A DNA stretch of 64,000 bases from contig JAMCCL010000055.1 of the NCBI GenBank assembly GCA_024516035.1, forward strand, positions 1 to 64,000, read 5' to 3'. The stretch comes from Bactericera cockerelli (taxonomy: Eukaryota > Arthropoda > Insecta > Hemiptera > Triozidae). Each line of letters opens with the position of its first letter. Position 1 is the stretch's first letter. The notes under the pieces are model-generated. The model was not told the DNA's origin, ran no database searches, and saw nothing but the letters and a program-made list of their open reading frames with translations. The position numbers and the translations under genes are program-made. Of this stretch, positions 5,573 to 46,200 are shown piece after piece.

Positions 5573-5780
5573 ATTAATAATAATACTTTTTGGAAGGTAA
5601 CTACAGGCGAAATTAATGCTCAAAGCTTTTTCTATTACCTAACCCTCGGAGGTCCTATTATTAGGTGGTCAAAACTCAAATTAACGAGGAAAATTCATGC
5701 ACTGGGTGGGATTCGAAACAACGGATCCCTACGCTACCTGGATCACCAGACTGGCGTGTTAAACACTTGACTACCATGGT
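5573..5780 (-). mobile_element. Family C tRNA-derived SINE
   Basis: Reverse orientation. 'ggtaactacaggcgaaattaatgctcaaagc' body and a head ending 'cttgactaccat'. The 3' (TTA)n tail is at the left end. Confidence 0.8.
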
Positions 5781-19900: not shown

Positions 19901-22900
19901 ACCCCTGTCTTTACAAGGAGGCTAATAATTGGCAAGGGCCCCCAGAACCAAGCCAATGCTGGTCTGCTCTCTGTTTATAGTCCCCCCACCCTGTTTATAG
20001 TTTACTATACTCTTCGATATTTTCAGGTCGATAGCTATCTCTCTAATCGTGCGCTCTCCTGATTTCCATTCCAGGTGGGTCTCTACTCCTCATTCTTCGA
20101 TATTTTCAGGTCGATAGCTATCTAATCGTGCGCTCTCCTGATTTCCATTCCAGGTGGGTCTCTACTCCTCATTCTTCGATATTTTCAGGTCGATAGCTAT
20201 CTAATCGTGCGCTCTCCTGATTTCCATTCCAGGTGGGTCTCTACTCCTCATTCTTCGATATTTTCAGGTCGATAGCTATCTAATCGTGCGCTCTCCTGAT
20301 TTCCATTCCAGGTGGGTCTCTACTCCTCATTCTTCGATATTTTCAGGTCGATAGCTATCTAATCGTGCGCTCTCCCGATTTCCATTCCAGGTGGGTCTCT
20401 ACTCCTCTTTCGTGGCCTGTTTCGTGTACACCATCCTGGGGTCCTGCAAAGACTGCCCCATCGGCCCGACGGCCATCATGTCCATTTTGACTCGGGAGAA
20501 CTCGCACGGGTTCGGGCCGCAGTTCGCCATCTTCCTCGCTTTCATGTCCGGAATCGTTCAGCTCCTCATGGGTGTCCTACAGTTGGGTAAGTCTGCCCTA
20601 ATAAACAGAAATGTACATGGGTGTCCTACAGTTGGGTAAGTCTGCCCTAATAAACAAAAATGTACATGGGTGTCCTACAGTTGGGTAAGTCTGCCCTAAT
20701 AAACAGAAATGTACTAGATGTAATGGTAATGGTGCTCAAAGGCACTTTTATTAACGGAAAGAATCCAATATAAACATTTAACAAAAATTTAACAAATAGT
20801 TAAAGAATAAAAAATAATAAAATAAAATACATTCCTACAATATTCGGATATAATACGTCCGCAAAGTAAAATGTAGTTAACAGGGGGAAAACAAAAGAAA
20901 TTACAAATAAGTTACAGAGCAAAACTAGGTAAATACATTAGAAAATTCAAAATGACGTAGATAAATTATGACAAGTAATAATTTAGAATAATAAGTACAT
21001 GTACATGGGTGTCTTAGAGTTGGGTAAGTCTGCCCTAATAAACAGAAATGTACTAGATGTACATGGGTGTCCTACAGTTGGGTAAGTCTGCCCTAATAAA
21101 CAGAAATGTATACTAGATGTACATGGGTGTCCTACAGTTGGGTAAGTCTGCCCTAATAAACAGAATTGTACTAGATGTACATTGTACATGCTGGTGTCTT
21201 ACAGTTGGGTAAGTCTGCCCTAATAAACAGAAATGTACTACATAGATGTACATGGGTGTCCTACAGTTGGGTAAGTCTGCCCTAATAAACAGAAATGTAC
21301 TAGATGTACATGGGTGTCCTACAGTTGGGTAAGTCTGCCCTAATAAACAGAAATGTACATGGGTGTCCTACAGTTGGGTAAGTCTGCCCTAATAAACAGA
21401 AATGTACTAGATGTACATGGGTGTCCTACAGTTGGGTAAGTCTGCCCTAATAAACAGAAATGTACATGGGTGTCCTACAGTTGGGTAAGTCTGCCCTAAT
21501 AAACAGAAATGTACTAGATGTACATGGGTGTCCTACAGTTGGGTAAGTCTGCCCTAATAAACAGAAATGTACTAGATGTACATGGGTGTCCTACAGTTGG
21601 GTAAGTCTGCCCTAATAAACAGAAATGTACATGGGTGTCCTACAGTTGGGTAAGTCTGCCCTAACAAACACAAATGTACTAGATGTACATGGGTGTCCTA
21701 CAGTTGGGTAAGTCTGCCCTAATAAACAGAAATGTACTAGATGTACATGGGTGTCCTACAGTTGGGTAAGTCTGCCCTAATAAACAGAAATGTACATGGG
21801 TGTCCTACAGTTGGGTAAGTCTGCCCTAACAAACACAAATGTACTAGATGTACATGGGTGTCCTACAGTTGGGTAAGTCTGCCCTAATAAACAGAAATGT
21901 ACTAGATGTACATTGTACATTGTACATGCGGGTGTCCTACAGTTGGGTAAGTCTGCCCTAATACACAGAAAAAGATGTATTAGATGTACAGTGCGCTGGT
22001 AGTCAAGTGGTTAACGCGCTAGTCTGGTAATCCAGATAGCGTAGGGTTCCATTGGTTCGAATACCACCCAGTGCATCAATTTTTCCTCATTAATTTGAGT
22101 TTGTGACCACATATCAATAGGACTCTGAAGGTTAGGTGGTAGAAAATGCTTTGAGGACTAACCTCGCCTGGTTACCTTCCACTAAAGAGTAGGTATTATT
22201 ATTATTATTTATATTACTGTGTACACTAGCCGAAGGGCCAAAATTTAAAACAGTTCTAGTATAATAATACTAATAATAATAATGAATAATGATATTAAAT
22301 ATCTCCTTATTTATTAATACTGCCCGATGAGGACCAATGAGTCCCATTATTCCAGCAGTAAGCCAAAGATGTATTATTATGTGGTCAAATCCCCAAATGG
22401 GACCCTGGGCACAACAAGGACCCTGGGCCTATACCCTAGACCTGAGACCCTGGTACCTACAGCTTGATATAGACCATATTTTCGGGACTCCGTTATGACC
22501 GCTTACATTCAACATGGTTTGATTATTATCATTTTTAGTGCACGAACACAACACAACTTAGGCCTATATCCTGGACCCTGGGGTAGAGCCAGTACCTCTT
22601 AAAATAATCTAACCATGCTATTAAATAATAATAACTAGTAGAAGGTAACCACCAGGCGAGGTTCATGCTCAAAGCATTTTCTACCACCTAACCCTCAGAG
22701 TCTTATTATTATGTGGTTACAAACTCAAATTAATGAGGAAAAATTCGTGCACTGGGTGGAATTCAAACCAACGGATCCCTACGCTACCTGGATTACCAGA
22801 CTAGAATTCCATGTAAGCGGTCTCAACGGAGTCCCGAAAATCGTCTATATCAAGCTGCAGGTTCCAGGGTCTGGGGTCTAGGGTCTAGGGTGCTCCTTTG

Positions 22901-25900
22901 TGGCCACCTACCAGGACTCGAACCAGCGACCTCGAGATCACAAGACCACAAGACCCGGGGTTAAGTGGCAGAGAATGTCTTAGGCATTAACTTCGCCCCG
23001 GATTACAAAACAATTGTAATTAAAAATTATTATTGATCTCTATTATTTTTTTTTTTTTTGCACATACTCCTAAGTTCTTTTTTAAATTTATTGTTGTGAA
23101 TTCTTTGTTGATGATTGTTTTGTAAAAATAAATAAAGTGTAAATAAATAAATAAAACTGCCTTAAGAATGTATCTACTGTGTCAAGTTCCATACCGCTAG
23201 CTAAATACTCGTAATACGTAAGGAGAAAGCTCGGTGTGGATTTTGTTGCATCTTTGCCTCAAGCACGATTCGAACCTATGACCTCCGGGTCACAAGGTCT
23301 TGACTGATCAGGCCGATAAATTATAACGGGGATCTGCATAATAATTTATTCACTATGACGTAAGCCATGCAACTTCTCCAGTTAGTGTTTTTTTTATATT
23401 ATTTAACACTTTATTAGATTTAAAAAAAAAAACATAATTATGTAAAATACAAATAATTATTTTAACAATTCCATTATTTTCCATTTAATTTTTTTTTCCA
23501 TTATTTTAATAATGGACAAAAATATATACAATAACAAGAAGAGAGAATAGAAAAATATATAAACACATAATATGTCCTAACTAAATTGCGGGGTTATTGC
23601 CTATGGCAATCTCTTCCACCCAACCCTTTATTTAACCGCCGGAGTAGAACTAAAGAGTCCCTTTTTCTTAGCAGTACAAAGTCCAGTTTATTAGTTTAAT
23701 ATTATGTAACCGTTCTGATATGACCATGCAGTCGGATGAAAATGACATTAACCAAAAAAAAAAAAAAAAAAAACACTATGGAACACACGTCTGCCCCGGT
23801 AGCTCAGTGGTAAAGGCGGCACTCTGTGATTCCAGAGAATCCAGATGTCGTTGGTTCGAAACCCAGCCGGGACATGACAAGTTATCCTCCCATTTGGGAT
23901 TTTTACCACAAAAAAATATGTCTTGGGCTTGCTGCTGGAATAATGGGACTTTCATAGTCGAAATCGGGTAGTATCAATAAGGCGATATTATTTTATGGAA
24001 CATACAAATCTAAGTACAATAACTTTTAATAAATTGGTTCATTCATACATTATAAACCGTCAAAAAAAAAAAACGTAAATTTAGAAGAGAAAAGAAAAAA
24101 AATACACATGTCCCCTGCTCTATTTGCTGTCCGTCAAGGGAAAAGTGTGAGTAGTAGCTAAGGAATTAGAAGTTTATTACAAAAATGAGCAGTACAGTAG
24201 AACCCTGTTATTATGAACTAATTGGGACCAGGGGTAGTTCATAATAGCGGGGTTCAATGTAAAAGTTCATAATATCGGGGTTCCATATAATCATAGGTAA
24301 AAGAAAGGGCAATTAGGCAAATTTTAGGCATATATGAATGGACGTACATGTATTTGAATGTTAATTTAAGTACAGATTAGGTATATAAATACAAAATATG
24401 TAGGTCAAGGGGGGTATTTACGAACAGGGGGTAATTACGAACAGTGGTCATTGTACCTAACCAGGATAAGATATTTCGAATCTGGTGGTTGAATACTATT
24501 ATTTTGAATTGTTTTTACAGGTTGAACACGAGTTTTCGATAGTATTTATTTTCAGTTGTAGTAGTAAGCTAGTGAAAATAGATCTATCAAAAAAATTGAT
24601 TTTTGAAGTTTTTGATTTTTTTAAAACAATTTTTTATTTAAGTGTTACTTGAATTTTTATCATTATTTTTTTTTAATTATTGATAAGCATGTTTTTGGTT
24701 ATTATTTTACAAAAGTAATTGTTTTAACCATTTTTTAAGTTATAGTTTTTGGGTGTTCTTAATTACCCCCGCTTTTTTTTGCTATGGGGTAATTACGAAC
24801 ACATATTTTGGGTGTTTGTTTTACCCTTTAACTTTTTTTTATTTATCAAAACACTCAGAATGCCCCGGAACTACAAGATGAAGAAACCACCTCCTTTGTA
24901 TACAGAAGCACAAATGATATCTGCTATCGTATTAGATGTTTTTAATGGCAACCTGGCTGTCAGAAGAGCAACGGCAGTGTTTTGAGATTCCGCAAACCAA
25001 AGTAGAATTTTCCAAACGTAAGGCTCAAAATTCTGAAATACTGTGAGGTTGTAAGAAGTACCAAGATATTAGTACCCTAATGTATTGGACCCAATGAAGG
25101 TATTTGTGTACTTGAACATAGCAAAAGAAAGGGAGAAAAATGAAAGTGTAGAAAACGAAAAGAAATATGGGGGGAACAGTTTCAAAAAAGAAGAAAAAAA
25201 ATGAAGGTAGAAGAAGACAAATCTGAGATTGACAATGACCTAGAAACTATTGATAAGACCAAAATCTGTAAAAAAAAAAAATTAAAAAAATATATAAAAC
25301 ACCTTTCAAAAGCTCTCATAATTAACTACATATTACTATTATTATGCTTTTATTACCAGCCTCCGTGGCGTAACGGTTGTGACTACTGCCCGTAGTCCAG
25401 AGATCCTTAGTTCGATTCCCGGTTCGAGCAGACTTTTCGCACAGAAAATTCTGTCCCCTCCGAACATGTGAGGCTGGCGATTCCGGCCCCACCCAGGCTG
25501 GGTGAGGTCAATGTGGGTACCTGGTACGATTCCCAGCGAATGGAGGGTGAAACCCCCGTCCTGTCTACCTCAAGTCAGGATGTTAAAACCAAATAGAATC
25601 AATGGACATGAAAGGAGCCTAGACATTGGATCTGGGCGTCCATATAATCCTCTCACCACCGTGATTTAGGTATCTATACCTATCTCACGGACACGAAATT
25701 ATTATTATTACTATTATTTGCAAGATAGAGATACCCTATTTGATAAGAGCTGACTAACTTCGTGGTTAGGATTCAAACCACTATCCTATGTGTCCATAAA
25801 CTTTGCATATTGTCATACAGGTGGCTAAAGACACAAAGTACAATTTTGGTGTATTATTTGTACATAAGAAGCACATATTGCCATTAAAAAGTTCGTTTTT

Positions 25901-28900
25901 AATATTGTATAATGTGTTCGCATTTACCCCCGTCAGGCGGGGGTAAATAAGAACACCACTAAACAGATACTACAGTATGCGCAAAACTATTTATAATGCA
26001 CCATTAGAATGCTAAATAAGTCTGTATACCAAAAAAATCACAAGACATGGATTTTACGAAAGCAACTCAGGGTTACAGATATGTTTATAAAATGTAGCTC
26101 AAAATCGTTCGTAATTATCCCCCTTGACCCTATGTACATTGTACATAGACCTATTGTGAGGATCTAAAGAAGTCAGTAATTCTTGAGAAATTAGAGAAAA
26201 TTTCCAATTCAAAAAAAAAAGTTTATTTTATCCGAAGTTCATAATATCGGGGTTCATAATAACGAGGTTCTACTGTATATGTGAGAGAGACAAAAATAAA
26301 ATATATTTCAAGAAAATAATAAAAAATTGAAGTTATCATAATTTGTGTTTATCAAAATAGCTCAAATTTGCTTTAGGCACCAATTTTTTGCCAAACCTGG
26401 GACTCGAACCATCAACCTCCAGATTATCATGTCTTCCACTTTATTCATCAAGCCACCGGATACTCTTTTTTTAATGATGTTTCGTAAAAATAATATATAT
26501 TGTCATGTAAAAAAAATATTTTTTGTTACTAATTATATATCATACATATATTATGTGTTAATCACAAATGTTATATCACAACTACTCAAACTCGGTTAGT
26601 AAATATTTGCTTAACTTGGGACTTGAACCACCGACCAGGTTACGAGTCTACCGCCTTATCAATCAAGCTACTGAGGTCGGTCTATTACTCCTATTTATGT
26701 TATTAGACCAATCTTTTTATTATTACTAATATTTTCTGGGATTGCTGGGGAAAATCCCATCTTTATAAAATGATAAAAAAAGTTATGTTGGTGAACCATA
26801 AGATAATGTTTTCGTGCCAATTGAATCAGAGTCTCTGTCATTGATCGTTTTTCCAAGAAAAGAAAGATCTCTAGATTGCTGGATGGGTGTTTTTTTATTT
26901 TAATATAACTATTATTTTCTGGGATTGCTGGGGAAAATCCCATCTTTATAAAATGATACAAAACGTTGGTGAACCATAATATAATGTTTTCGTGCCAATT
27001 GAATCAGTCTCTGTCATTGATCGTTTTTCCAAGAAAAGAAAGATCTCTAGATAAAAACGTGCGAATACGTAAAAGCCCACAGTAGGATATTTTTTTTTAT
27101 TTTTTTGCGTCTCTTTCAACTGTGTGGTCATAACCCAGACAGCACGGAAGTTGACTTCCAGTCTGGATTTAAGGTGGAAATATCCAGGTGTATAAAGTCA
27201 ACTGGACCTCCAACTGTCCCGACAGCTGGATTTTTCCATCATGGATTAAATCAGTTGACCAGCCACCTGGATATTTCCAACAAAAATCCATCTAGACTCA
27301 GTCACCTGGGCAGTCAGCTGGAAATATAACGACTCTCTCCAGCTAGGACATAACTAGAATTTAGTCAGTTGACCAGTCAGCTGGAAATGCTCCACATTTT
27401 TCCAGTTCAGTTAAAACGCGTTCTCGGATAGATTCGGGTTTCACACGAACTTTACCGAGAGTGTTCTTGTTGAATTCGCCATCTTTAATCTTTGAATAAT
27501 TTTTTAGAGAAATTTCGTTTTTGTGATTCTCGATTATTGTGAGTTGTTTTAATTCTTTTTATAATTGGTACCTATTTCAATTAGTTTTTGAACATTTTTA
27601 TAACTACTGTGGATGCACCTTGTTCATAATATTGTGGACGCACCTTGAGCGGCAAAATTTTTGAATTTGAATTTTTTAAAAAATCGTTTCTTACAAATTC
27701 TGATAATTTTTACCAAATAGAACCAATTTTTGCTATGTAATTTTCTTCTTTTTTAACTGAAGATGCCTTCACAGGCGAAACATGTCTTATTTCCTTAAAT
27801 AAACCAATAAATTATTACAAAAGTGAAGTTAGTAAAAATTACTTGAATTGTTCTCATTTACTACTGCAAGTGTTAATTCTAACTGAACTTCAAATTTGAT
27901 TTCGAGAAAGTGTTAATTCTTACTGAACTCCATATTTGATTTTGAGATGTCACAGAAGGAGTTCTTTGGTTTGTCTAAAATTCTAAATCGTGAATCGTGA
28001 CAGAAGAAAAGGAAAGGACAACAAAAAGTTAAAAATGGATAACATTCTTCAATGGACAGTACTCCATGCACTTGGACAATAATGAACTTTCTGCACTCTA
28101 CTGTTCCTGGACACTGGACAGTCAAACTAGCACAGGGGTTCAACACCATCAATTCACTTGGAATTGTACCTTAAAAAATTGTACCTTACTTTTTTACATG
28201 CTTCCTGATTATTTGACTCAAAATTAATTAGCCAATCTTCTGTGCACTGTCTCTAATAATAATATTAACTATTCAGCTTTCTAAACCACCTTATTACTAT
28301 GAAGCCCCTCAAATTTTGTGTTCATTTTATATCTATTAAAAAAAAGTGTTCCACACTATTGTGTTTTATAATTTCACTAGTCTTAACAATTAAGTCAATT
28401 TTGTTTTAATTTAAGTATAACAATGCTTTTTTGGTAATAATTCTCAAATCAAACAACCCAGCAATTCAAATTAGCCACAGAAGTATGTAAATTGTCATGA
28501 AGGATTACAAATACATAATAACATTCACTAATCCATGTTCCACCACGTTAGACATTGCTTAACTTTGGCTATTTCATAAAAACTGGTGTATTCAATGCCT
28601 CATCATCATTTTCTGCTGGCTATTAGTTTATTTCTTTGTTATTTTTGGTTTCACTGAAGAAATATATTTTCATTTACATAGTATTATTATTTTATTGTGA
28701 TTATGTACATGGTATGAGCATATTTTATAATTGGATATCATTATTTTATTTCTATACTAGCTAAAACCTGGCATTTTGTCACCATTAAGGTTTTTTCTCA
28801 TGGCCGGTGTCCTAATGAAAATAATAATAACATTTTTAATTGGAAGGTAACCACCAGGTCAGGTTATGCTCAAAGCATTTTCTACCACCTAACCCTCAGA

Positions 28901-31900
28901 GTCTTATTATTATGTGGTCACAACCATAATGAGGAAAAAATTGAAACAACGGAACCCTACGCTAAGTGGATTATCTGACTAGCACGTTAACCACTTGATT
29001 ACCAGTGCACTTGAAAATTGTATTACATATTTTTATTTTGATAATTTTCTAGTATGTTGAAGGTGGCTTAGGGGGGGTGAACTCTCAGTGAAAGTACCGT
29101 TTCGTATTGTAACCCCAAGAGGACATAGTCAGCCAGACATGCACGACTTTGAGTATTATATATAGAGATTATACCTACTTAGGAAGTACTTGTGATACAT
29201 TGGTACAAGGTCTTGTGACATGGTGGAAATTTAATAGTGCATTTTACACTTTTGTGACAATTTTTTTATTAATAATAAACACTCTTATTGTAAAATATAA
29301 TCATGTTAAAGAGTCTTATTTGAATTGTGTTGTTTAAAACAGATTAGTTATTTTCTTTTTCTTTCCAAATTTCTATATAAAAAAAATTATACCCAAATTT
29401 GTGTGTGTGTATGTGTTAAAAAAACCTATTTAAAATTTATTACTTTATTTTTATACAAAAAAAATATTCTTCATGAGATTTGAATGTATGGCCTCTAAAT
29501 TAAATAACTGAAATTGAATTTATGCCTAATATACATTTGTTTCTAGATTTTTATTACTATTATTATTATTATTATTTGCAAAAAAATGCATATAATGGGA
29601 TTCGAACCCACGACCTCAAAACCAAGAGCGTAGCATTTGATTATTATGTAGTATAATGTACAGTATAGGTAAATAGGTATGTCAACATTGTGGTAGTGAG
29701 TTACTACCCATCCACTAGAGAGCGCTATAAGTAGCTGGAAATAAGTGGAACAAATCCAGTTGACTTTGGGCAACTGACTTCCAGTTAAAAGTTGGGTTAC
29801 TTTCCAGTTCATTTCCAGTTGATTTCCAGGTGGAGGTCAGGTGGAAGGTGGAAATCTCCAGCTGATTTCCAGGTGGGCAAGTAGACTTTTTCCACCTAAC
29901 AGTATGGTATACATCCAGTTGACTGTGCTGTCTGGGAATTATCACGACGAGGGGTTTTACCTTCATTCACTGGAAACTCACGAACCAGATACTCACATAA
30001 ACCTCACCAAGCCTGAGTGGTGCCGGCAATAGCCAGCATTACGAGGGTTTGATTTTAAATGGCCTCCCATCCTAGTCCTAACCCCGCTGGATGTTTCTTA
30101 AATTTGGCCATCGCATCTAAATACCACTGTGCGAATCCTAATTTATTTCTAAACAATAATAATAAAACTCTTTAGTGGAAAATAAGCACCAGGCGAGGTT
30201 AATTCTCAAAGAATTTTCTACCACCTAACCCTCAGTGTTTTAATATTATGTGGTCACGAACTCAAATTGAATACACCAGTTCTCAGTCAGTTACTGAAGT
30301 CAAGCAACGTCCAGCGAGGCTAGGACTTCGAATCCTCGTGATGCTAGCAATTCCCGGCCCCACCCAGGCTGGGTGAGTTTCATTTGAGTAGCTGATTTGT
30401 GAGTTTCTAGTGAATGGAGGGTAAAACCCGCGTCGTGATATGACCTTGTAGTTGAAAGCGATGTTAAACCCAAATTAAAGAGAGAGAGAGAGAGAAAAAA
30501 AAAGTCTGTCCCGGTAGCTCAGTGGTAAAGGCGGCACTCTGTGAATCCAGAGTTTCCAGAGGTCGTGGGTTCGAAACCCAACCGGTACATGACAAGTTAT
30601 CCTCCCATTTGGGATTTTTACCACATAATAATAATATGTCTTGGGCTTACTACTGGAATAATGGGACTTTAATAGTCTTTATCGGGCAGTATAAATAAAG
30701 CGATATTATTATTTCGAGGTCGATACATTTTTTTTTTGCTTCTAAGTTAATAGTGAGGAGACATTTCAGTCTATCTCACTAAAACAGCTAAAACTATAAC
30801 TAGTATGTTAAAATTAATTGTTTTAAAAATTTCCGCACAAGATATCAAAGAAAAATTTCGAAATATTTTCGGAGAGCAATCCGATTTGAAGGCACAGTTA
30901 GCTTTAGTAACCATATTATTATTCAATTCAACTATGGAATTTTTCAATTCTGAAGGACCATATAGTAGCAATGACGAATCAAATCAAATCTATATATTGA
31001 CATTTTCATGTCTTTGCTCTGGCACATAACCAAAATTATGTGACGAAATTATGTAACGAAATTATGTAACGTATGTAACGATATTATGTAACGAAATATT
31101 GAATTGTAAAGGGAGAGAAGAGGGAAAGTGTGTGTCATGCGCACAATGGAGAAGTATTGAATTGTAGAGGGAGAGAAGAGAGAAGGTATGTGTCATGCGC
31201 ACAATACGAAATTTGGTCAGTTGGGTTTTGGACCTTGAATAGTAAAGATGAAAATGTCCCAATGGTTGCAGACTCGTATGCAAGCGTTTTTTCAAACAAA
31301 AATTTAACATCGCTTTCAACTGCATGGTCATATCAGTAGTCACCGTGGCAGAGTGAGTTAGCGCGCTAGGCATTGTACGCATGGTGACCTGGGTTCGATT
31401 CCCAGCGGGGCAGGAATTTTTATCGAAATTTGACTTTTACCAAAACGACCACGTCCATAATAATTATGTATCCACATCTATATAATATATAATAATATTT
31501 CAATATATTGTCATACCCAAGTACGCAATAGCTTAGAAATCTATTTTTTTCGTTACATAATTTCGTCACATAATTTCGTTACATAATTTCGTTACTTAAT
31601 TTCGTTACATAATTTTGGTTATGTGCCAGAGCAAAGACATGAAAATGTCAAAAATAGAGCTAAAAAATTTCGTCCCCGCCAGGATTCGAACCCGTGCTGA
31701 CTGGGTGGCAGGTCGAGCTTCTACCAATAGACAAAGTTGTCTTCTGAAGAAACGAGGGCAGAAAATGAGCTAACTAAATTAATACTTGGAAACTTAAACA
31801 TTAAATTTTTTAGTACATTTAGCCCAATTTTCATCACTACAAAGTCTGCTTGGGGGTTGAATATCACATATATAAAATTGTAGTGATGAAAATTGGGCTA

Positions 31901-34900
31901 ATTGTACTAAAATATATAGATTTGATCATCTTCTTACTGTTCAGGTTTCCTCATCGATTTCATCTCCGGCCCCGTCTCGGTGGGCTTCACCTCGGCCGCG
32001 GCCATCATCATCGCCACCTCCCAGATCAAGGACTTGCTCGGCCTCTCCTACACCGCGTCCCGCTTTGTCGACGTGTGGGATCAGCTGTCCCACCACATCA
32101 GGGAGACGTCGCGAGGAGACGCCGTCCTGGGGATCTCCTGCATGGTCATCCTGCTTCTGCTGAGGGTGAGTGCGAGCTATGTCATCATTTTTTTTTTTTT
32201 TTTTTTTTTCCACTAGTCCTGAAAATATATCAATCACCTTTACCTTTGGCAACATTTGTAAACAAAATACAGGAGAACCAAAGGCACGAGCATACCTATT
32301 CCAAAAAATGTCACTTGTAATCCAGAGAGGTAATTGCTCAAGTATTCTGAGTACTTTGCCCTCTGGATTGCAAATGGCAGAGATATACTATCTGAAATAA
32401 AAATATAATATTTATTTCCTTTACTTTTATCTACCACCTGATTTAAGCAATGTAAATTTTATATCTTTTAACTCTCTCTTGATATATCATGTACCAGTGT
32501 ACCTTGTACCTAGCACACATACAAAAATGTATATTAAATGCTATAATATAAATAAAAAATAAAAAGTCAGTGAGTGAGTGAAACAAACATATGAGACAGG
32601 CATTTCTCTTTCCTTTTCTTCATAGAGGTAGGACAATAATAGAGAATAGAGGTAGATCAAGAATAGAGGTAGGTCAAGCATAGAGGTAGGTCAAGCATAG
32701 AGGCAGGTCAAGAATAGAGGTAGGTCAAGCATAGAGGCAGGTACATAATAGGTAGGTCAAGCATAGAGGCAGTTACATAATAGGTAGGTCAAGCATAGAG
32801 GCAGGTACATAATAGGTAGGTCAAGCATAGAGGCAGGTACATAATAGGTAGGTCAAGCATAGAGGTAGGTCAAGCATAGAGGCAGGTACATAATAGGTAG
32901 GTCAAGCATAGAGGTAGGTCAAGCATAGAGGCAGGTACATAATAGGTAGGTCAAGCATAGAGGTAGGTCAAGCATAGAGGCAGGTACATAATAGGTAGGT
33001 CAAGCATAGATGTAGGTCAAGCATAGAGGCAGGTACATAATAGGTAGGTCAAGCATAGAGGTAGGTCAAGCATAGAGGCAGGTACATAATAGGTAGGTCA
33101 AGCATAGAGGTAGGTCAAGCATAGAGGCAGGTACATAATAGGTAGGTCAAGCATAGAGGTAGGTCAAGCATAGAGGTAGGTCAAGCATAGAGGCAGGTAC
33201 ATAATAGGTATGTCAAGCATAGAGGTAGGTCAAGCATAGAGGCAGGTACAGAATAGAGGTAGGTCAAGCATAGAGGTAGGTCAAGCATAGAGGCAGGTAC
33301 ATAATAGGTATGTCAAGCATAGAGGTAGGTCAAGCATAGAGGCAGGTACAGAATAGAGGTAGGTCAAGCATAGAGGTAGGTCAAGCATAGAGGCAGGTAC
33401 ATAATAGGTATGTCAAGCATAGAGGCAGGTACAGAATAGAGGTAGGTCAAGCATAGAGGTAGGTCAAGCATAGAGGCAGGTCAAGAATAGAGGTAGGTCA
33501 AGCATAGAGGTAGGTCAAGCATAGAGGTAGGTCAAGAATAGGGGCAGGTACATAATAGGTAGGTCAAGTTGACGTGTGGGATCAGCTGTCCCACCACATC
33601 AGGGAGACGTCGCGAGGGGACGCCGTCCTGGGGATCTCCTGCATGGTCATCCTGCTTCTGCTGAGGGTGAGTGCGAGCTATGTCATCATTTTTTTTTTTT
33701 TTTTTTTTTTTTTTATCCACTAGTCCTGAAAATATATCAATTACCTTTACCTTTGGCAACATTTGTAAACAAAATACAGGAGAACCAAAGGCACGAGCAT
33801 ACCTATTCCAAAAAATGTCACTTGTAATCCAGAGAGGTAATTGCTCAAGTATTCAGAGTACTTTGCCCTCTGGATTGCAAATGGCAGAGATATACTATCT
33901 GTAATAAAGAAATAAAAATATCATATTTATTTCCTTTACTTTTATCTACCACCTGATTTTATCAATGTAAATTTTATATCTTTTAACTCTCTCTTGATAT
34001 ATCATGTACCTTGTACCTAGCACACATACAAAAATGTATATTAAATGCTATAATATAAATAAAAAATAAAAAGTCAGTGAGTGAGTGAAACAAACATAAT
34101 ATGAGACAGCCATTTCTCTTTCCTTTTCTTCATAGAGGTAGGTCAATAATAGAGAATAGAGGTAGATCAAGAATAGAGGTAGGTCAAGCATAGAGGCAGG
34201 TCAAGAATAGAGGTAGGTCAAGTTAGTGTGCACTGGTAGTCAAGTGATTAACACGCTGGACTGGTAATTCAGGTAACGTAGGGATCCGTTGGTTCCAATC
34301 CCACCCTGTGCATGCACTGAGAAAAAAAACTATCCTGGACATTCATCCTTGAATAAATGTTAAAATATAAGGATGATAGATACTTAAATTAGTATATTAT
34401 ACACTTCATTATTACAATGTAACAATGTAACTTGTATCGTTGTCTTAGTGTGCATGGACAAATAATCTTTTCTTAAAGTAATCCCGATTCCATCTTCGTT
34501 TAAGGATAACTTACTAGCTAACAAGGATGTCTTTTTTCTCAGGCACTGGTAGTGAAGTGATTAACGCGCTAGTCTGGTAATCCAGGTAGCGTAGGGATCC
34601 GTTGGTTCCAATCCCACCCTATAATAATAAATAATAAGACTCTGAGGGTTAGGTGGTAGAAAATGATTTGAGCATTAACCTCGCCTGGTCGTTACCTTCC
34701 ACTAAAGAGTGTTATTATTATTCAAATACCCAAATTGGCATTATTGTATGTGTTTTGAATCCCACCCAGTGCATGAATTTTTCCTCAATAATTTAAGTTT
34801 GTGACCACATAATAATAAGACTCTGAGGTAGGTGGTAGAAAATGCTTTGAGCCTTAGCCTCGCCTAGTGGTTACCTTCCTCTAATGAGTGTTCTTATTAT

Positions 34901-36315
34901 TATTATTTACATTCCCGAAATGACACTAGTGACAGGTTTAATTTCAAAAGCACAAAAGCTGCCCTGACTTTTCATGATGACACCTTCCCTTTTGACATGA
35001 AAAATGTCCAGAAAATTCCTAGTGTTCCCTCTTCCATTGACATTAAATTTATGAAGAAGAAATTTCTTTTGTCTCGAAGCTCGAAGTAAAAATATAAATT
35101 TTAGCAAGAGCTAAGAAAGTTTGGTAAGTTGGTATTTGATTTGATTTAGAAAAGTTTAGAAGAAACTTAAAAATAATTCTTCATAACTTGAACTGTGATT
35201 CATAATTGAATGTTTTATTGAAAGGTACTCAATTCATCAAAACGTCAATTATAACGTAGGTTTTGACGTGCATGTCAAAACTTTTTTATTTTAACTTTTC
35301 TAAACTTTGTGAAAAACTAATAACAAAAAATCGGTGGTAATAATTTAATAGTAATAATAAGAGACTCGAACTTTTATGCATTTTTATTTTTATAGCTCTC
35401 TCGTACCGATAATGATTCTTTAGAACAAAAAGAAAAAGAGCTAAAAAAAAGGTTGAATAATATACCGTCATGAATGAACTAGTAGATGTTAAAATGTTAA
35501 AGAAGCGTAATTTTTTTAAATTATGTACAATTGTACATAGGTCATTATGTACCTACGTACATTTAATACAACCCCTCACTTTTCCATTTACTTTGAAGGT
35601 CCATTAGAAGACTATTTATTTACAAAGTAAGATGTTATAGGTAAATAATAATAAAAAAAATATATTTTTCATATATTTTATACATTTTGTTTTTATTTTA
35701 ATTTTTCATTATATTAATACTTAGATTTAAGGAATTACCCAAAATTGTGAACGCTGTAAAAATTTATTATTATTATTATCATCATCAAGATTTTTCATAG
35801 GTACTAAATAGGTAGTAAAACGAGTTTGAGAAGTTGTGATATGAAGAAAGTTATTAACACAAATATAATAACTTGATTGGTAAATGTGGTTGCAGAAAGT
35901 GAAGGACATCCCCATCGGGCCTTCCGAGACGAAAGAGAAGACGACAGCCCAGAAGCTGGCGGAGAAAGTCCTCTGGTTCATTTCGACAGCCAGGAACATC
36001 CTGGTGGTGATATTCTGTGGCATGCTGGGGTACTACTACGACGAGAGCACTCATGGGAAGGTGCCGTTCAAACTATCTGGTGAGTCCAATATTACTTCCG
36101 AGAAATTTCTAATATTAGAAATCGGAAGTATTTTGTTTGTTTTTGTAAAAAAAAAATACTTTTTTGCTCCGATTTCAATTTTTTCATATTCCTGGACGTT
36201 TCATAACCTCCTGAGCAAATTTTGTTTTGTGTCCGTCTGTCGATGTCGTAATATAGTTTTGTGTCCGTCTGTCGTAATATGATCTTGCAAATGAAAAAGA
36301 AGTTAAACCAAGAAG

Positions 36316-36357
<42 letters not shown>

Positions 36358-39300
36358 AACAGGCCTCATTCTAGCAGACTCTCACTCTCATAATCCCTGA
36401 ATCTCCCTTTGGTTGCCTTCCACCAAAGAGTGTTTTTTTGGCCATACAGCCACACCAAAGAGTATAACACTCTTTATTGTTATACTCTTTCGTATTATTA
36501 TTGTTATAATATTTCGATTCTTTATAATGTCATTTTATAAAGAATCGAAATCTTCTAAAGGGTCATTTTTGTCATTAAGAGTCGGATGTCTTTCAATTTT
36601 CTTTCAACCTGTATTCAGTGGGAGGGGGCAGGGGCACTCTCGCAGTATCTACTCGAACCATCAATTAATCACTTGGTGCTCGACGCTGGAGGAGGTTAGA
36701 GGAGAATTCCGGAGAGCTTGCAGGGGAATTTTAATGCGGGTTGGGCAGGGGGGTTGGATGGAAAAGAAGGGAACAAGATCTACAGAGGTACTTGAAGAGG
36801 GTTTCGGGGCTATTTATTTTGAAACTAATTATCCAAACAGCCCCCCCCCCCCCCACTGCCCCCATGGCAGTCAGCAAGATATTAATCTTGTTCGAAAGAT
36901 AGACCAAGGGTGTCCCAAGATAAATGAGAGTTCAGTGTGAAATAGAGTTTGGTTAACGGGGAAAAAGAAATGGCATTTTGTTTCAATTATTCAATAATGA
37001 AATTAACGGCAGGTAACAATGGTAAATCATTCTAAGCATATTGAGGTTAGGTGGTAGAAAATGGTTTGAGCATTTACCTCGCCTGGTGGTTACCTACATT
37101 CCACTAAACAGTGTTATTATTATTTCGAGGTAGATTACAGTTATTTTTTTATTCTAAGTTAATAATGAGGAGATATTTCAGTCTATCTCACTAAAACTAT
37201 AATTAATTGTTTAAAAATTTCCGCACAAGATGACACGTTTGTAAGATCGCACTCTTCTGGATAGTTGTTTCTAAAGTTTCTATAGAGTGTCGCATATCCA
37301 ATAGCTTTAAATTTCCTTTAAATTCCGTTGTTATTATTATTATTCAACCATTGAGTAAGTAGTTTCTTGAAGATATTTCTCACTGTGAACTCTTAAAATG
37401 CTGTAACTATGAAAGTTCAAAAATTTGGGTTGTTAGCGATCCAAATTCATGATTCTCACCATTCCCGTATCCCAAACATACTTGCGGTTGGCATTGTTCA
37501 ACCTCTTCCTCACGGTTAAGGTTGTTTTTGGCACTATTCCACATTTTAAGGGCGGATGCACTTCCTAACGAAAAAAAACAAACAAGGGCGCAAAAGATTT
37601 TTGTGTTATTGTTTTCTGGCATGACAGAATACAATAACAAAGTGTTATTGTCCGTATCTGTTTAAAATAATTCTAGTAATAAGTCTTTCATAATTAGGAA
37701 ATAATTTTAATTATGAAATTAATTAATTAATACTTTGGGTAGCCCTGTTCTTTCTTATCTGTCTTCCAATGTCCCTTGTGACACGGGGAAATTTCTACCT
37801 AATTAATTTAGAAACAAACACTTAATATTTCCCTCTCCCTCTCCCTCTTCCTCTGTGTCTTTACCCTCTTTCTCTCCTCTCTCTCTCTCTCTCTTTTTCT
37901 GTCTCTTTCTCTACTCTCTCTCTCTCTTTTTCTGTCTCTTTCTCTCCTCTCTCTCTCTTTTTCTGTCTCTTTCTCTCCCCCTCTCTCTCTTTCTCTCCCC
38001 TCTCTCTCTCTTTTTCTCACTCCGCCCCCCCCCTCTCTCTCTTTCTCTATCCCCGCCCCTCTCTAGTTTCTCCCAACCCTCCTATATCTTTACTTTCCTC
38101 TTCTTCTCTCCCTTTATTCCTCTATATTTCTCTCTCTCTCTCTCTCCCCTTTTTTCCTTTTACCATTCTTTTCTCTCTATCTACTTCTCTCTCTCATTCT
38201 CTTTCCCAATCTACCAAACCTAATCCCATTGTTTCTATCTCTCTCTCCTCCCCTAGCCCTCCTTCCTTTCCTCTCTCTCTCTCTCCCTCCCTCTCTCCCC
38301 CCATTGATTCTATCTCTCTCTCCTTTCATACCTGCTTCCCTCCCCTCTCTCTCTCTCTCTCTCCTTCTCTCTCTCTCTCTCCTCTCTCATTCTCTCTCAT
38401 CCTTCCACCCCTCGCTTCCCAATCTTCTCCACCTCATCCCATTGTTTTCTCTCTCTCTCTCTTCCCTTTTCTCCCCCTCCTCTTCTCTCCCCCCAACGTC
38501 CCCACTCCGCTCCCTCCTCCCCCTTCTCCGCCCTCTCATCTTAATGTGTTTAACACAAAAGCCCGGTGTCGTTTTGATAAATCCGTTTGTTATTCAATAG
38601 ACGGGGAGACTGTAGAAGGAGACACGAGACACAAAGGCGCCCCCCTGTGATAAGGAGAAGGAGGCGTTTGATAAGCATCAGGGCTTGATGAAACAAAGAA
38701 AAACACGGGGGGGGGGGGGCTGGAACGATACAAGGGGATGAAAAGGGATAAGTGTCAAATTTACACGGATTTTGGAGGGGGGGGTCGTGTCGTGTCGTTT
38801 GGAGCGAAACGATCTTGCTTACGAATAAATAGACGGCTTTTTGCTTTCTAAATACATATTATTGTACATGCGTTAATTATTTGTTTAGAGAATGTAAATG
38901 TTTAAACAAACTAGCTATCTTCGTATCTTCCAAAGTTGTTGATAAGTTTAAGCCGTCCCTTATGAGTTATTTAAATGAAAATGTAGATAGGTATCTATTA
39001 TCTATGTGTTTTTGAGTCTTAAGACATTAATAAATGTTTACCTGGAGCAATACCAAGAAGAAGCATAAAATCATTTGCTGGAAACTCACAAAGCAGCTAG
39101 CAACCTCACCCAGCCTGGGATTGTTGAAAATCGCCAGCATCACAAGGGGTCGGGTGGTCATCAGGTCATTCATCCAAGTTTATTTTAGTCCTCAATTCTT
39201 CTTAAATGCTTACCCTAACCAATGTATTTCGTAGCTTTTACCGAAAAAAGGCATCATTGATACTTTAACTCTTTGTTCATTAACCCTTTTACTCCTTGTT

Positions 39301-42300
39301 CATTAACCCTTCAACTCCCCTGTTCCCAGAGGATGTCCAGGCTGGTCTACCCACATTCCAGCCTCCACCTTTCTCTCTAGAACAGAATGGCAAGAGCTAC
39401 AACTTCTTCGACATGACGTCAGAACTCGGATCCGCCATCATGGTTATTCCCCTCCTCTCCATATTGGAGAACATCTCACTGGCCAAAGTTTTCAGTAAGT
39501 ATCATGATTTGTTTTTTGGAAGAAGCATTAAAACGCACTAGGTAGGTATAAAGTACATATATATTATTTGCAAAGATAAATTTGTATGCACGCCTGGTAA
39601 TTATATTGTGTATGCAATGTGCATTACAGTCCAAGAACTCACTACACTTGATCCTAGATATAAGAGAACTCTAATAGGTACCTCATATTATTTTTTACAG
39701 GAGAAATTAGATGTCAACGTGGCTAAGTGTGTTAGCCCACTAGGCAGTTCTCTTATTGTGACCTGGGTTCTTTCCCCAGCGGTGTAGTCATTTTTCTGCT
39801 ACATACCTTGTGATGAAAAACGATTCCCACAAATCTTGTGTTGTAATAACACACATTTTATTCAGAATTAGTACCTGCTGATGAGAGCAAATAAGCTCGA
39901 AACAGCTGTCTAGGTATATTCTGATATTCATGTACATTTAGTACAACTTCTCACTTTTCTGTTTACCCTTTAAAAAAAAAGAAGATAATTTTACAGTCCT
40001 CCCGTCCATTTGAATTTTTTTATTGTTTCATTTGTACAATATACTTACATATACAATAAATTGTGTATAGAGAAAGTCATACATAAAAAAAATATATAAA
40101 TATTGGCAAAAGAAACTTAATTATTAAAAAAAAATTCCCTACTCGCGTCTATTTCTCAGGCGATGGCAAGAACATCGACGCTAACCAGGAAATGCTGGCG
40201 CTGGGTGCCTGTAACATAGTCTCCTCATTTGTGGGTTCCATGCCCGTGACGGGCGCACTTAGCAGGGGCGCCGTCAACAATGCCAGTGGGGTCAAGACCA
40301 CTTTCGGAGGAGTCTATACCGGTAAGTTTGAAAGATGGAATATCTAATCTAACCTGTTTACGTAATTGCATAATATATAATATGCGTGTAAACAGAGATA
40401 AAAAAAAAAGAAAAAAAAAATATATATAAAGTAAACAAAGAGGAGCCTCAGTACTGACCTCAGTAACTCGCTGGATAAGGCGGCGGACTTGTAAACTGCA
40501 GGTCGTTGGTTCAAGCCAGCCTAGATTTAGTAAAGCGAGTTTTAGTAGTGTGTGATATCATGATTCACACACAATACGATAAATTTAAATAAAAAACTTG
40601 AAAAAAAACTGTTAGCGTAATGGGACTCCCCGTCTCGAGCCGACAGCCCAATTAAAGCACTACCTACCGTACTATTGTTAACAAACACCTCCATAGCCTC
40701 CACAGGTATCATTGTCATCGTGTCCCTACATTTCTTCACCCCCTACTTCAATTACATACCCAAAGCGTCCCTGGCAGCTGTCATCATTGCAACTCTTGTG
40801 TATCAAGGGGGTGAATTTGACTAACCTACCTCCATTAACCACACCTCCATTGCCTCCATAGGTATCATAGTCATCGTGTCCCTCCAACTCTTCACCCCCT
40901 ACTTCAAGTACATACCCAAATCCTCTCTGGTGGCTGTCATCATTGCTACTCTTGTGTATCAAGGGGGTGAATTTTACTAACATACCTCCAATAACCACTA
41001 CTCCATTGCCTCCACAGGTATCATAGTCATCGTGTCCCTCCAATTCTTCACCCCCTACTTCAAATACATACCCAAATCCTCTCTGGCGACTGTCATCATT
41101 GCAATTCTTGTGTATCAAGGGGGTGAATTTTACTAACCTACCTCCATTAACCACACCTCCATTGCCTCCACAGGTATCCTAGTCATCGTGTCCCTCCAAC
41201 TCTTCACCCCCTACTTCAAGTACATACCCAAATCCTCTCTGGCGACTGTCATCATTGCAACTCTTGTGTATCAAGGGGGTGAATTTTACTAACCTACCTC
41301 CATTAACCACACCTCCATCGCCTACACAGTTATCATAGTCATCGTGTCCCTGCAATTCTTCACCCCCTACTTCAAGTTCATACACAAATCCCCTCTGGCG
41401 ACAGTCATCATTGCAACTCTTGTGTACCAAGGGGGTGAATAAATTTTACTAACCTACCTCCATTAACCACACCTCCATCGCCTCTACAGGTATCATAGTC
41501 ATCGTGTCCCTCCAATTCTTCACCCCCTACTTCAAGTACATACCCAAAGCGTCCCTGGCGGCTGTCATCATTGCAACTCTTGGGTATCGAGGGGGTGAAT
41601 TTGACTAACCTACCTCCATTAACCACACCCCCATTGCCTCCACAGGTATCATTGTCATCGTGTCCCTCCAACTCTTCACCCCCTACTTCAAGTACATACC
41701 CAAATCCTCTCTGGTGGCTGTCATCATTGCAACTCTTGTGTATCAAGGGTATGAATTTTACTAACCTACCTCCATTAACCACACCTCCATTACCTCCACA
41801 GGTATCATAGTCATCGTGTCCCTCAAACTCTTCACCCCCTACTTCAAGTACATACCCAAATCCTCTCTGGTGGCTGTCATCATTGCAACTCTTGTGTATC
41901 AAGGGGGTGAATTTTACTAACTTACCTTCATTAACCACACCTCCATTGCCTCCACAGGTATCATAGTGATCGTGTCCCTGCAATTCTTCACCCCCTACTT
42001 CAAGTACATACCCAAAGCGTCCCTGGCGGCTGTCATCATAGCGGCGGTGGTCTTCATGGTGGAGTTCCATGTGGTGAAACCGATGTGGAGGACAAAGAGT
42101 AAGTCGAAGTTTGTGTACATTCATGGGATACAGTCGAACCTGGATATAAGAGAAACCTGGATATAAGAGAAAGCTGGATATAAAAGAACTGGGTATAAGA
42201 GAAACCTAGTTATGAGAGAAACCTTAATATAAGAGAACTGGGTGTAAGAGAAAGCTGGGTATAAGAGAATCCTGGATATAAGAGAACTGGATATAAGAGA

Positions 42301-43270: not shown

Positions 43271-46200
43271 GAGAGAGATGAGAGAGAGAGAGAGAGAAGA
43301 GAGAAGAGAAGAGAGAGAGAGAGAGAGAGAGAAGAGAGGAGAGAGAGTAGGAGTGAGAGAGTGAGAGAGTAAAGAGTGAGAGAGTGAGAGAGTAGAATGA
43401 GAGTGAGAGAGTGAAGAGTGAGAGAGTGAGAGAGTGAGAGAGAGAGAGAAACGCGGAAGGATAAAGAGACCCAATTGGAAAGAACTCCGGTTAAAAAAGT
43501 TTTAATGTTTTTCCTTAACTTTTTCTCAACTCTTTATGAATCCTTTGAGACAATCCTGTTTTTCTTTTTCATTTATATTTTTATCACCCTGTCTTCTATC
43601 ACTATTTTATTTTATTTGCATTTTTTTCCCTTCTCAGTTCTCTTATAGCTAACTTCTCTTTCTTTTGCTCCTTTTCTCTCTCTCTCGTGTCCTGAGAGTG
43701 TTTTGCCACCACTTGTTTATTCGTTCTGCTTTTTCTTTTATCTCTCTCTCTTTCTCTCTCTCTCTCTTTCTCTCTCTCTCTTTCTCTCTCTCTATATGTT
43801 ATTCTCCCTCTAGATATTTTTATTTATTCTTTTATTACCTTTTCTTCTTTCCCTCGCACCTTTTTAGGTATTATTTGTTTAAATTTTATTCTGTCAGTTC
43901 CTTTTTCTCTTTTTGATTTTTTTCTTGCTTTTCATTTTCCTATTTTTCTCATATCTCTATTTCTCGCGTCCTCAATTTTGCCCTATTTTTACTTTAATAT
44001 TATTAATTTTCATATATCTTTTTCTCTTTCTTTTTTTTCTTTCTCTTTCTCATTCTCTTTCTTTTTCTCTTTGTCTTTGTCTGTGTCTTTCTCTCTCTTT
44101 CATTCTCTCTCTTTTTCCGTTTCTCTCTCTCCTTCCCTCTCTATCACTCCTTCTCCTTTTTCTCTCTTCCTCTCTCTCCCTCCCTCTCTATCTCTCTTTC
44201 CCCTTTTCTCTTTTTCTTTCTCTTTCTCTCTATCCCTTCATCACTATCCCTTCCTCTCTATCTCTCTTTCACTGTCACTTTCTCTATCTCATTCTCTCTT
44301 TCTCTCTCTCCCTCCCTCTATATCTCTCTTTCCCCTTTTTCTCTCTATCCCTCCCTCTCTATCTATCTTTCCTCTTTTCTCCTCTTTCTCTCTCTCTTTC
44401 GCTCTCACTCTCTCTATCTCATTCTCTCTCTCTCTCTCTTTCACTCTCTCTATCTCATTATTTATTTCTTCTCCTCATATATCTCTCTTTTCCTCGTTCC
44501 ACTTGAATTCAATTTCAGAAACAAATTCAACGACTTCGATTTTATTCCCAGACTTCGTTGTGCTCCGGTGATCAGGACTTTCTGTCCCGCAGGATTTGTT
44601 CTGTTCCATCTACATAACTTTTTTGTACCTTTTTTTACATGCAGAAAAAAAGAACTTTTTTTATCCTTAACCCGTGAGAGAATTGAGGATCGAAGAAATC
44701 TCTCAAAAACTGTAAAGGAAATTGAGGTGTAAAAGCAAAATCCTGCACTCATTTTTTATCAATTTCTTTTAATTTTTACTTTCCATTACCTGGCACTGGA
44801 GAAAAATTTCTTTGTACAGATAAAAGCCTAAAATTGTATTTCTTAAATTACTTAAAACAATTGAGTACTGGTAACAGATAGTAAAATAAAAATCTGGTGT
44901 AAACATCACACGACTGTCCTTATCATATTAGGAATGGGAATTTTCCGTCGATTTCCGCCACTGGTAACTCAATGATAACAGTTAGCTAAAAATCAATGTC
45001 AAATCCATAATCAGCACCTCAAAATAAATTGGATTTAATATGTCACAACCTCCATCTAGGATAAAAAATTGAAAAAGGGTATTGAAAATTATTATGTAAC
45101 TTAAAATCATTTAAGTTACCTATTTAAAAAATCTTATAGGTCGTGGATCACAAAATAAACCTGCTCCGACAAACAGGTAAACAAAGACTTGACGAGTTCT
45201 AGGACGTCTACATGTATAGTTTGAGGAAAAAGTTCTACACTTGAGTCATCAAGGGTTAAAGAAAAAGAAAAGAATTTGTTTTTTTTTTTCATCCTCAAAG
45301 AAACAGAAAGAATATTTATTTCTATTTGCTACTCTTTTACCTTGAACCTAGCTCATACGAATAATTTAAATGCCGCGCATTGGTTATAGTGAAAAACTTC
45401 ATACGAGTATTTATTTGATATTTGGTATCTCTTTTGTTTTTTGATCTAAAGAAGAGAATATTATATAATACTTTGTCATCTATTTATCACCAAATCTTGC
45501 TTGCAGTTATAATAATAAAACTCTTTAGTGGTAACCACCAGGTGAGATGAAAGCTCAAAGCTTTTTCTACCACCTAGCCCTGAGAGTCTTAAAATTATGT
45601 GGTCACAAACTCAAATAAATGAGGAAAAAATCATGCAATGGGTGGAATTCGAACGGATCCCAACGCTACCTGAACTACCAGACTAACTCTTTGACCATTT
45701 CACTAGCAATGTTCCGTGTACTTTGTTTTTCTTGTTAGTTATTTTCTGCTATTTTCTTCTTCTTACAGAAATCGATCTCATCCCCGCTGCAGCCACGTTC
45801 CTCACCTGTCTTCTGGTCCGGCTGGAGATGGGAATGGTAATAGGCGTCTCGATCAACGTGCTCTTCCTTTTATACTCCTCCGCGAGGCCCCGAGTCGAGG
45901 TCGCGAAACTTCGTCACTCTTCGGCGGACTTCGAGTACCTGACGATCACGCCCGATCGCGCGCTCGTGTTCCCGAGCGTGGGATACGTGAGGAATGTCGT
46001 CAGTAAGGCGGGGCGCAAGGACGGTAATTCGAAAATGCCAGTGGTGATTGACAGCAGTCATATTCAGGGCGCGGACTTCACAGCCGCCAAGGTAAGTGTT
46101 TGTTTGGCACCTAAGAATTTATTTATTGAATTATTTTATTTTTGGAACCTTGAGATGTTCGAGTTCAACAGCTGAAGCAAAATACTCTAAAGAAAAAATT

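What the first reader, a model, noticed from the sequence alone, without database searches (positions are those of the whole stretch)
20011..42098. One gene with three independent tandem arrays built from its own splice junctions
In the SLC26A11-type gene, exon 2 acceptor (5 units), exon 2 donor (about 20 units), exon 3 3' half plus donor (2 copies plus a donor-like minisatellite) and exon 7 acceptor plus 5' half (9 units) are all tandemly amplified, with different unit lengths and sequences. One such event is a curiosity. Several in one gene suggest either a locus-specific instability or selection on decoy splice sites. Arrays of GTAAGT could titrate U1 snRNP, and serial acceptors could tune which exon copy is used. 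The arrays are seen directly; the functional idea is inference. I know of no described equivalent, but I cannot search.
Basis: partly seen in the sequence, partly recalled or inferred. Interest (0 to 1): 0.9.

Follow-up and report, generated by a model that had tools for sequence, protein, structure and literature searches.

The report
Splice-junction minisatellites in a psyllid gene
A sulfate-transporter gene of a plant-sap-sucking insect carries many tandem copies of its own exon edges, a kind of repeat already described in amphioxus as 'mirages'; it looks like a mutational habit shared by other genes of this genome and tolerated by splicing, not a special device of this gene.

Summary
In an SLC26A11-type gene of a psyllid (perhaps Bactericera cockerelli, inferred), the window has 5 exon-2 acceptor units, 20 exon-2 donor units, 2 copies of the exon-3 3' half with donor, and 9 exon-7 acceptor units. 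Two related copies on contig C7 carry such arrays with other counts (exon-2 acceptor 5/2/2; exon-2 donor 20/5/36; exon-7 acceptor 9/5/not found) plus an exon-3 acceptor array (1/4/8), so assembly error is unlikely. The gene is alive: exons 2-9 differ from copy A by 23 synonymous and 1 nonsynonymous change.

It is not locus-specific. Three other SLC26 genes, an ABC-transporter gene and two myosin genes carry unrelated splice-edge arrays; 3 of 16 exon matches taken without regard to arrays had one. In the window alone, arrays on exon edges are not significantly above random placement (3 of 14, P=0.24). Each of 32 decoy sites, used alone, gives a premature stop; periods ignore the reading frame. 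Best reading: minisatellites born by local tandem duplication, tolerated because the complete exon is still spliced. This matches the 'mirages' of amphioxus. New here: many in one gene, in an insect, and in unrelated genes. No RNA was available.

The parts
8584..9075 (+). Exon counted here as exon 1 (a start exon should lie upstream); more than a dozen single-base indels against copies A and B, read as contig-end sequencing error
20011..20409 (+). Exon 2 acceptor array: 5 x 79 bp, each with CCATTCCAG|GTGGGTCTCTACTCCTC; copies A and B have 2 units each
20391..20586 (+). Exon 2 (196 nt), intact; begins in the last acceptor unit, ends at the first donor unit
20567..20714 (+). Exon 2 donor array, first block: 3 x 49 bp, TTGG|GTAAGT
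20999..21990 (+). Exon 2 donor array, second block: 17 units of 49/58 bp; copy A has 5 donor units in all, copy B 36; search of the genome found matches only here and at copies A and B
31945..32165 (+). Exon 3 (221 nt); single acceptor here, 4 in copy A, 8 in copy B (103-bp unit)
32646..33568 (+). 17-bp AGAG|GTAGGT donor-like minisatellite in intron 3, not found in copies A and B
33571..33666 (+). Second copy of exon 3's 3' half plus donor (no usable acceptor seen by eye), part of a 1501-bp-period duplication
35896..36079 (+). Exon 4
39330..39494 (+). Exon 5
40160..40321 (+). Exon 6
40685..42039 (+). Exon 7 acceptor plus 5' half array: 9 x 156 bp; copy A has 5 units
41958..42098 (+). Exon 7 (141 nt), begins in the last unit of the array
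45769..46091 (+). Exon 8
49116..49269 (+). Exon 9; by comparison with P0003 a short last exon lies further on and was not located

Best explanation
These are splice-junction minisatellites of the kind called 'mirages' in amphioxus. A local tandem duplication happened to include an exon edge; the array then grew and shrank like any minisatellite. It persists because one complete exon with both proper sites remains, and the spliceosome pairs these (exon definition, reading of the full exon), so the extra edges are removed as intron. The same process works on other genes of this psyllid genome; the gene is notable for how many of its edges were hit, not for a special mechanism. Shown: the arrays, copy-number differences between assembled copies, a gene under strong purifying selection, unrelated arrays in other genes. 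Inferred: tandem-duplication origin, correct splicing, neutrality, genome-wide spread.
For: Arrays present with other unit numbers in two further assembled copies. Exons 2-9: 23 synonymous and 1 nonsynonymous difference between window and copy A, dN/dS about 0.014, no indel in 1546 nt; spliced ORF open for 515 codons. Decoy use alone gives premature stops in 4 of 4 exon-2 acceptor, 19 of 19 exon-2 donor, 1 of 1 exon-3 and 8 of 8 exon-7 decoys, so the conserved protein needs the right sites. Periods ignore the reading frame (5 of 18 listed are multiples of 3). The exon-2 donor unit was found only at this gene and its two copies (that search skips very common words and scores only the best candidates). 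Unrelated edge arrays in paralogues at 7.07, 10.42 and 24.37 Mb of C7, ABC gene L041, myosin genes L044 and L052. Published amphioxus mirages share the anatomy and vary between haplotypes.
Against: No RNA was available, so correct splicing is inferred. Over eight SLC26 regions arrays lie on exon edges about twice as often as random placement (17 against 8.9, P=0.003, but three regions are homologous), which pure random placement does not explain. Two of the eight regions had no array on an edge. In copy B the real exon-3 acceptor scores lower (4.5) than its seven decoys (9.9-11.1), so site strength does not explain how splicing picks the right one. Exon-7 decoys differ from the real exon mostly synonymously (dN/dS 0.20) and, against their own consensus, by 9 synonymous and 11 nonsynonymous distinct changes, more synonymous than neutral expectation, perhaps because units are re-copied from the real exon.
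Confidence: 0.84

Rival explanations
1. The decoy sites are selected: unit number tunes the share of unproductive (premature-stop) splicing, or donor arrays hold U1 snRNP, and so set the gene's output.
For: Decoy sites score about as high as the real ones (exon-2 donors all 12.2 in the window, acceptors 14.8 against 15.8; copy B exon-3 decoys 9.9-11.1 against 4.5) and keep GT in 61 of 61 exon-2 donor units and AG in every acceptor unit listed; simple use of any of 32 decoys is unproductive, as a poison-splice dial would need.
Against: Units are nearly identical copies, so kept sites need no selection. Unit numbers vary widely (5/2/2, 20/5/36, 1/4/8) while the protein does not. The exon-3 acceptor array is absent from the window's copy. 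Arrays of the same kind in unrelated genes.
Confidence: 0.1
2. Extra units are spliced out one by one as tiny GT-AG introns (the tandem-duplication model of intron gain), so that any site choice ends in the same mRNA.
For: In the window the arrayed acceptors of exons 2 and 7 are CAG|GT, so each unit is formally a GT...AG intron; also in L041 and exon 5 of the 10.42-Mb gene.
Against: Exon 3 of copy A and several decoys of A and B start GC; arrayed acceptors of exons 3 and 7 of the 10.42-Mb gene, exon 2 of the 24.37-Mb gene and myosin L044 do not start GT. One window exon-7 decoy starts TT. Donor-unit introns would be only about 45-54 nt (my reading).
Confidence: 0.05
3. Assembly artefact: long-read errors or collapsed/expanded repeats.
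For: The window starts at a contig end whose first ~14 kb has about 1.5-3.6 single-base indels per 100 bp.
Against: The indel rate falls to about 0.2-0.5 per 100 bp before the arrays begin; arrays of the same units are in two other assembled copies on a 38-Mb contig. Exact unit numbers may still be off.
Confidence: 0.02
4. The window's copy is a dying duplicate, and the arrays are decay.
For: Exon 1 is shifted many times against copies A and B; copy B matches only exons 1-3 in the 100 kb read.
Against: Indels are as dense in flanking noncoding DNA of the contig end, so exon 1 damage is best read as error; exons 2-9 are intact with dN/dS 0.014.
Confidence: 0.04

Closest known systems
'Mirages' of amphioxus (Adh3, globins BflGb6/BflGb9, troponin C, PGBD5); PMC3087553 and PMC3902484, passages read
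   Same: Minisatellite-like tandem copies spanning an intron-exon boundary, at 5' or 3' exon edges; units 10-160 bp; numbers differ between haplotypes (6 against 3 in BflGb6); many repeats carry AG/GT sites; normal splicing reported for Adh3 and the globins.
   Different: Insect instead of lancelet; four edges of one gene in the window and a fifth in related copies; up to 36 units (41 extra in the ABC gene L041); one pair with a 1501-bp period; splicing not observed here; somatic instability not tested.
Variable internal tandem repeats in human genes of segmental duplications (PMC2812944, passages read)
   Same: Minisatellite expansion in recent gene duplicates; some at exon-intron boundaries, with new introns proposed.
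   Different: There about half lie in coding sequence and change the protein; here the protein is unchanged.
Intron gain by tandem duplication with AG|GT (Rogers 1989, seen only as cited in PMC3087553; potato RdRp case PMC4974935, search listing only)
   Same: Tandem units containing splice signals.
   Different: No new intron shown; AG|GT not consistently present at arrayed acceptors.

Membership tests
[quoted passage not shown]
mirages (amphioxus) | Both 5' and 3' exon boundaries affected | tested here: met
   Exon 2 and 7 acceptors and exon 2 and 3 donors in the window, exon 3 acceptor in copies A and B
mirages (amphioxus) | Unit number differs between haplotypes | tested here: inconclusive
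   Numbers differ between window, copy A and copy B; which are alleles and which paralogues is not settled
mirages (amphioxus) | Regular mRNA splicing not disturbed | not testable with these tools
   No RNA; indirect support from dN/dS 0.014 and premature stops on simple decoy use
mirages (amphioxus) | Somatic length instability (Adh3) | not testable with these tools
   Needs reads
intron gain by tandem duplication | AG|GT inside the unit at every arrayed acceptor | tested here: not met
   Met for window exon 2, 8 of 9 window exon-7 units, L041 and 10.42-Mb exon 5; not for copy A exon 3 (GC), 10.42-Mb exons 3 and 7, 24.37-Mb exon 2, L044
intron gain by tandem duplication | A new intron is spliced from the units | not testable with these tools
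   Needs RNA
SLC26A11-type sulfate/anion transporters | Pfam Sulfate_transp and best matches to SLC26A11 proteins | tested here: met
   PF00916 258.5 bits; best PDB match sodium-independent sulfate anion transporter 9iar, E 6.9e-108; Diaphorina citri 85%
SLC26A11-type sulfate/anion transporters | C-terminal STAS domain | tested here: inconclusive
   PF01740 19.7 bits, under its cut-off of 22.6; last exon not located

The most novel reading that the evidence does not exclude
This psyllid genome has a lineage-wide process that keeps duplicating exon-intron junctions, so that a sizeable share of its exons carry arrays of full-strength decoy splice sites; their fast-changing unit number acts as a widespread, heritable dial on productive splicing and a nursery for new introns.
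Probability: 0.13. Interest if true: 0.82.

Novelty: new member of a known kind. Interest (0 to 1): 0.55.

Why it matters
If the sampled rate (3 of 16 exon matches, a small and uneven sample) holds, this genome offers many natural experiments on how the spliceosome picks one of many near-identical sites, with a series of unit numbers already in the assembly. It also gives a second animal group for a phenomenon that, among the papers whose passages I read, is described for lancelets only (searches; open-licence PMC papers only), and a possible source of intron gain. Practical: gene models in such genomes can pick up false exons; one Diaphorina citri model with a doubled exon-2 end may be such a case.

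Tried and rejected
Rejected: locus-specific cause; assembly artefact; dead gene; units taken from a repeat that is common elsewhere, tested for the exon-2 donor array only (the other arrays were not searched because the service did not answer). My own idea that arrays survive only where the exon starts with GT looked good at first (exons 2, 3 and 7 are the three CAG|GT acceptors among the window's eight) but failed in copy A and in other genes.

Test of array placement, observed/expected arrays on an edge: window 3/1.69 (of 14 arrays), A 4/1.41 (16), B 3/0.60 (8), 7.07 Mb 1/0.48 (2), 0.13 Mb 0/0.33 (1), 10.42 Mb 5/2.49 (12), 24.24 Mb 0/0.79 (4), 24.37 Mb 1/1.12 (2). Its limits: TRF stops at period 500, so the 1501-bp exon-3 pair is not counted; the detached second donor block of the window and the exon-3 donor array at 24.37 Mb, which TRF starts 26 nt past the protein match, were not counted; outside the window exon ends are ends of protein matches, give or take 10 nt.

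Period test: 18 periods that I listed, counting the exon-2 donor array twice (49 and 58 bp); the mixed-period 24.37-Mb exon-3 donor array and the exon duplication L042 were left out. A first protein search with one exon found only two unnamed fragments. The splice score was trained on 26 donors and 21 acceptors, 8 of each being the window's own, so it is rough and partly circular. The Adh3 mirage paper PMC117041 is not held. A genome-wide count of triple GGTAAGT arrays against a reversed control motif could not be run.
Full report
WHAT THE WINDOW IS. The window is bases 1-64000 of contig C539 (126,510 bp) of a 565-Mb, 1032-contig genome. The spliced exons 2-9 encode an SLC26A11-type anion transporter (PF00916, 258.5 bits; best solved relative 9iar, sodium-independent sulfate anion transporter). 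The closest named proteins are from the psyllid Diaphorina citri (85%), with an unnamed one at 93% (best 120 of 1694 listed). B. cockerelli has a 567-Mb genome according to PMC12203342 (passages), so that species is a guess from size and kinship, not a result.

THE OBSERVATION. All four features exist: exon 2 acceptor x5 (79 bp), exon 2 donor x20 (49/58 bp), exon 3 3' half with donor x2 (period 1501 bp) plus a 17-bp donor-like minisatellite, exon 7 acceptor with about 85 nt of exon x9 (156 bp). The eight exons 2-9 are open in one frame with AG before and GT after each.

RELATED COPIES. C7:6865001-6965000 holds two copies on the minus strand: A, matched over exons 1-9, and B, matched over exons 1-3. 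Unit numbers in window/A/B: exon-2 acceptor 5/2/2, exon-2 donor 20/5/36, exon-3 acceptor 1/4/8 (103-bp unit), exon-3 donor 2/1/1, exon-7 acceptor 9/5/not found (one exon-2 acceptor unit of A is seen). The intron-3 AGGTAGGT minisatellite was found in the window only. Window and A are collinear over most of the window, mostly 0-5% substitution per 500-bp bin, more in arrays and in some downstream bins, up to 14%, so they may be haplotypes; near 34-35.5 kb the window is nearer to B (0.2-0.4%) than to A (0.7-4.2%). Whether A and B are alleles or paralogues of the window is left open.

QUALITY. Against A and B, bins up to about 14 kb have about 1.5-3.6 single-base indels per 100 bp, 14.5-17.5 kb about 0.7-1.3, and later bins mostly 0-0.9, with exceptions of 2.1 near 43 kb and 1.0 near 26.5 and 58 kb. 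Exon 1's frame damage lies in the poor part and is best read as sequencing error; the arrays start at 20 kb.

THE GENE IS ALIVE. Window against A over exons 2-9: 23 synonymous, 1 nonsynonymous difference, dS 0.062, dN 0.0009, no indels.

WHAT DECOYS WOULD DO. If a decoy were used alone, the frame meets a stop early in 32 of 32 cases (4 exon-2 acceptors, 19 exon-2 donors, 1 exon-3 donor, 8 exon-7 acceptors). The decoys are not weak: by a rough score the window's exon-2 donors all equal the real one (12.2) and its acceptor decoys are close (14.8 against 15.8); window exon-7 decoys range 9.5-17.2 against 16.9; in copy A the exon-3 decoys score 6.7-11.1 against 10.8, and in copy B 9.9-11.1 against only 4.5 for the real site. 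GT is kept in 61 of 61 exon-2 donor units of window, A and B, but units are near-identical, so this needs no selection. Exon-7 decoys, 11 used, one broken unit of copy A left out: dN/dS 0.20 against the real exon; 9 synonymous and 11 nonsynonymous distinct changes against their own consensus. That is more synonymous than expected of wholly free DNA; re-copying from the real exon would explain it, but weak constraint is not excluded. Of 18 edge-array periods, 5 are multiples of three, as for DNA that is not translated.

NOT SPECIAL TO THIS GENE. Five other SLC26 regions of C7 were read: 7.07 Mb has an exon-8 donor array (53 bp x16.7); 10.42 Mb has arrays or repeats at the exon-2 donor, exon-3 5' half, exon-4 end, exon-5 and exon-7 acceptors and an exon-7-donor-like 36-bp unit; 24.37 Mb has an exon-2 acceptor pair and a long exon-3 donor array that runs off the fetched stretch; 0.13 and 24.24 Mb have none on an edge. 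Unrelated genes: ABC-transporter L041 has 41 extra copies of an exon's acceptor and first bases (76-bp unit) ending 0.5 kb before the real exon, and six copies of another exon's end with donor, the real one included; myosin L052 has the last 15-16 nt of an exon plus GTAA at least 11.7 times, the fetched stretch ending inside the array. Genes were named by Pfam matches. Sample taken without regard to arrays: L040 (4 exon matches), L041 (2), L043 (1), L046-L051 (6), L052-L054 (3): 3 of 16 with such an array. Limits: the two L041 cases are one gene, flanks of the nine myosin matches are only about 90-300 bp, and a 33-bp repeat close to an exon match in L040 and L043 was not counted because I could not place the donor. 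Two more cases were picked because the match list looked duplicated: L042 (whole exon x2) and myosin L044 (exon 5' half with acceptor x3, single in L045). So the true frequency is uncertain, but the phenomenon is not confined to SLC26 genes.

CHANCE. Placing arrays at random in each region: window 3 of 14 on an edge, 1.69 expected, P=0.24; eight SLC26 regions together 17, 8.9 expected, P=0.003, with the caveat that window, A and B share ancestry. Enrichment at edges is therefore modest. My reading (inference): arrays arise anywhere in introns; inside exons they are removed unless in frame; at edges they are tolerated, and GC-richer exon edges may seed longer-lived units.

HOW SPLICING COPES (inferred). 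Decoys carry only about 17-96 nt of exon. Recalled, not looked up: classical duplicated-site experiments (Reed and Maniatis 1986) found that truncated exon sequence next to a site lets the full-exon site win. That would explain why the complete exon is used. In amphioxus, Adh3 and globin mirages are reported not to disturb normal mRNA (PMC3087553, passages; PMC3902484, passage).

KNOWN OR NEW. The anatomy is that of amphioxus mirages. In ten searches of the open-licence PMC library the papers whose passages I read describe it for lancelets, and boundary repeats in human segmental duplications (PMC2812944, passages); other listed papers were not opened and subscription papers were not searchable. 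New here: an insect, four edges of one gene, large unit numbers, and the same kind of array in unrelated genes.

Noticed in passing
window 1-14000: Contig-end stretch with about 1.5-3.6 single-base indels per 100 bp against two related copies; gene models here will look frameshifted.
   Followed up: yes
C7:6936914-6937636 (L016) and C7:6899357-6899667 (L012), minus strand: Exon 3 acceptor plus 31 nt of exon in 8 (copy B) and 4 (copy A) units of 103 bp, absent from the window.
   Followed up: yes
L041 2317-5235 (reverse-complement coordinates; C10:29384001-29390500): ABC-transporter gene with 41 extra copies of a 76-bp unit holding an exon's acceptor and first bases, 0.5 kb before the real exon.
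   Followed up: partly
P0007 (Diaphorina citri gene model, 718 aa): A 29-aa stretch at the end of exon 2 occurs twice, as if the exon-2 donor region were duplicated in that psyllid too.
   Followed up: no
C4:1257392-1258603 and C4:4916041-4917252 (L001, L002): An SLC26 gene open in one long frame, in two very similar copies in opposite orientation 3.7 Mb apart; about 25% identical to P0003.
   Followed up: partly
window 8688-8784: 45-bp in-frame coding repeat in exon 1; copy A has one unit fewer.
   Followed up: partly
window 61311-62585 and 61828-61993: Leucine-rich-repeat-like ORF (by eye) with a 72-bp, 2.3-copy repeat.
   Followed up: no
window 42137-42962: Intronic 16-17-bp minisatellite (CTGGATATAAGAGAAAC-like) just after exon 7, also present in copy A.
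   Followed up: no
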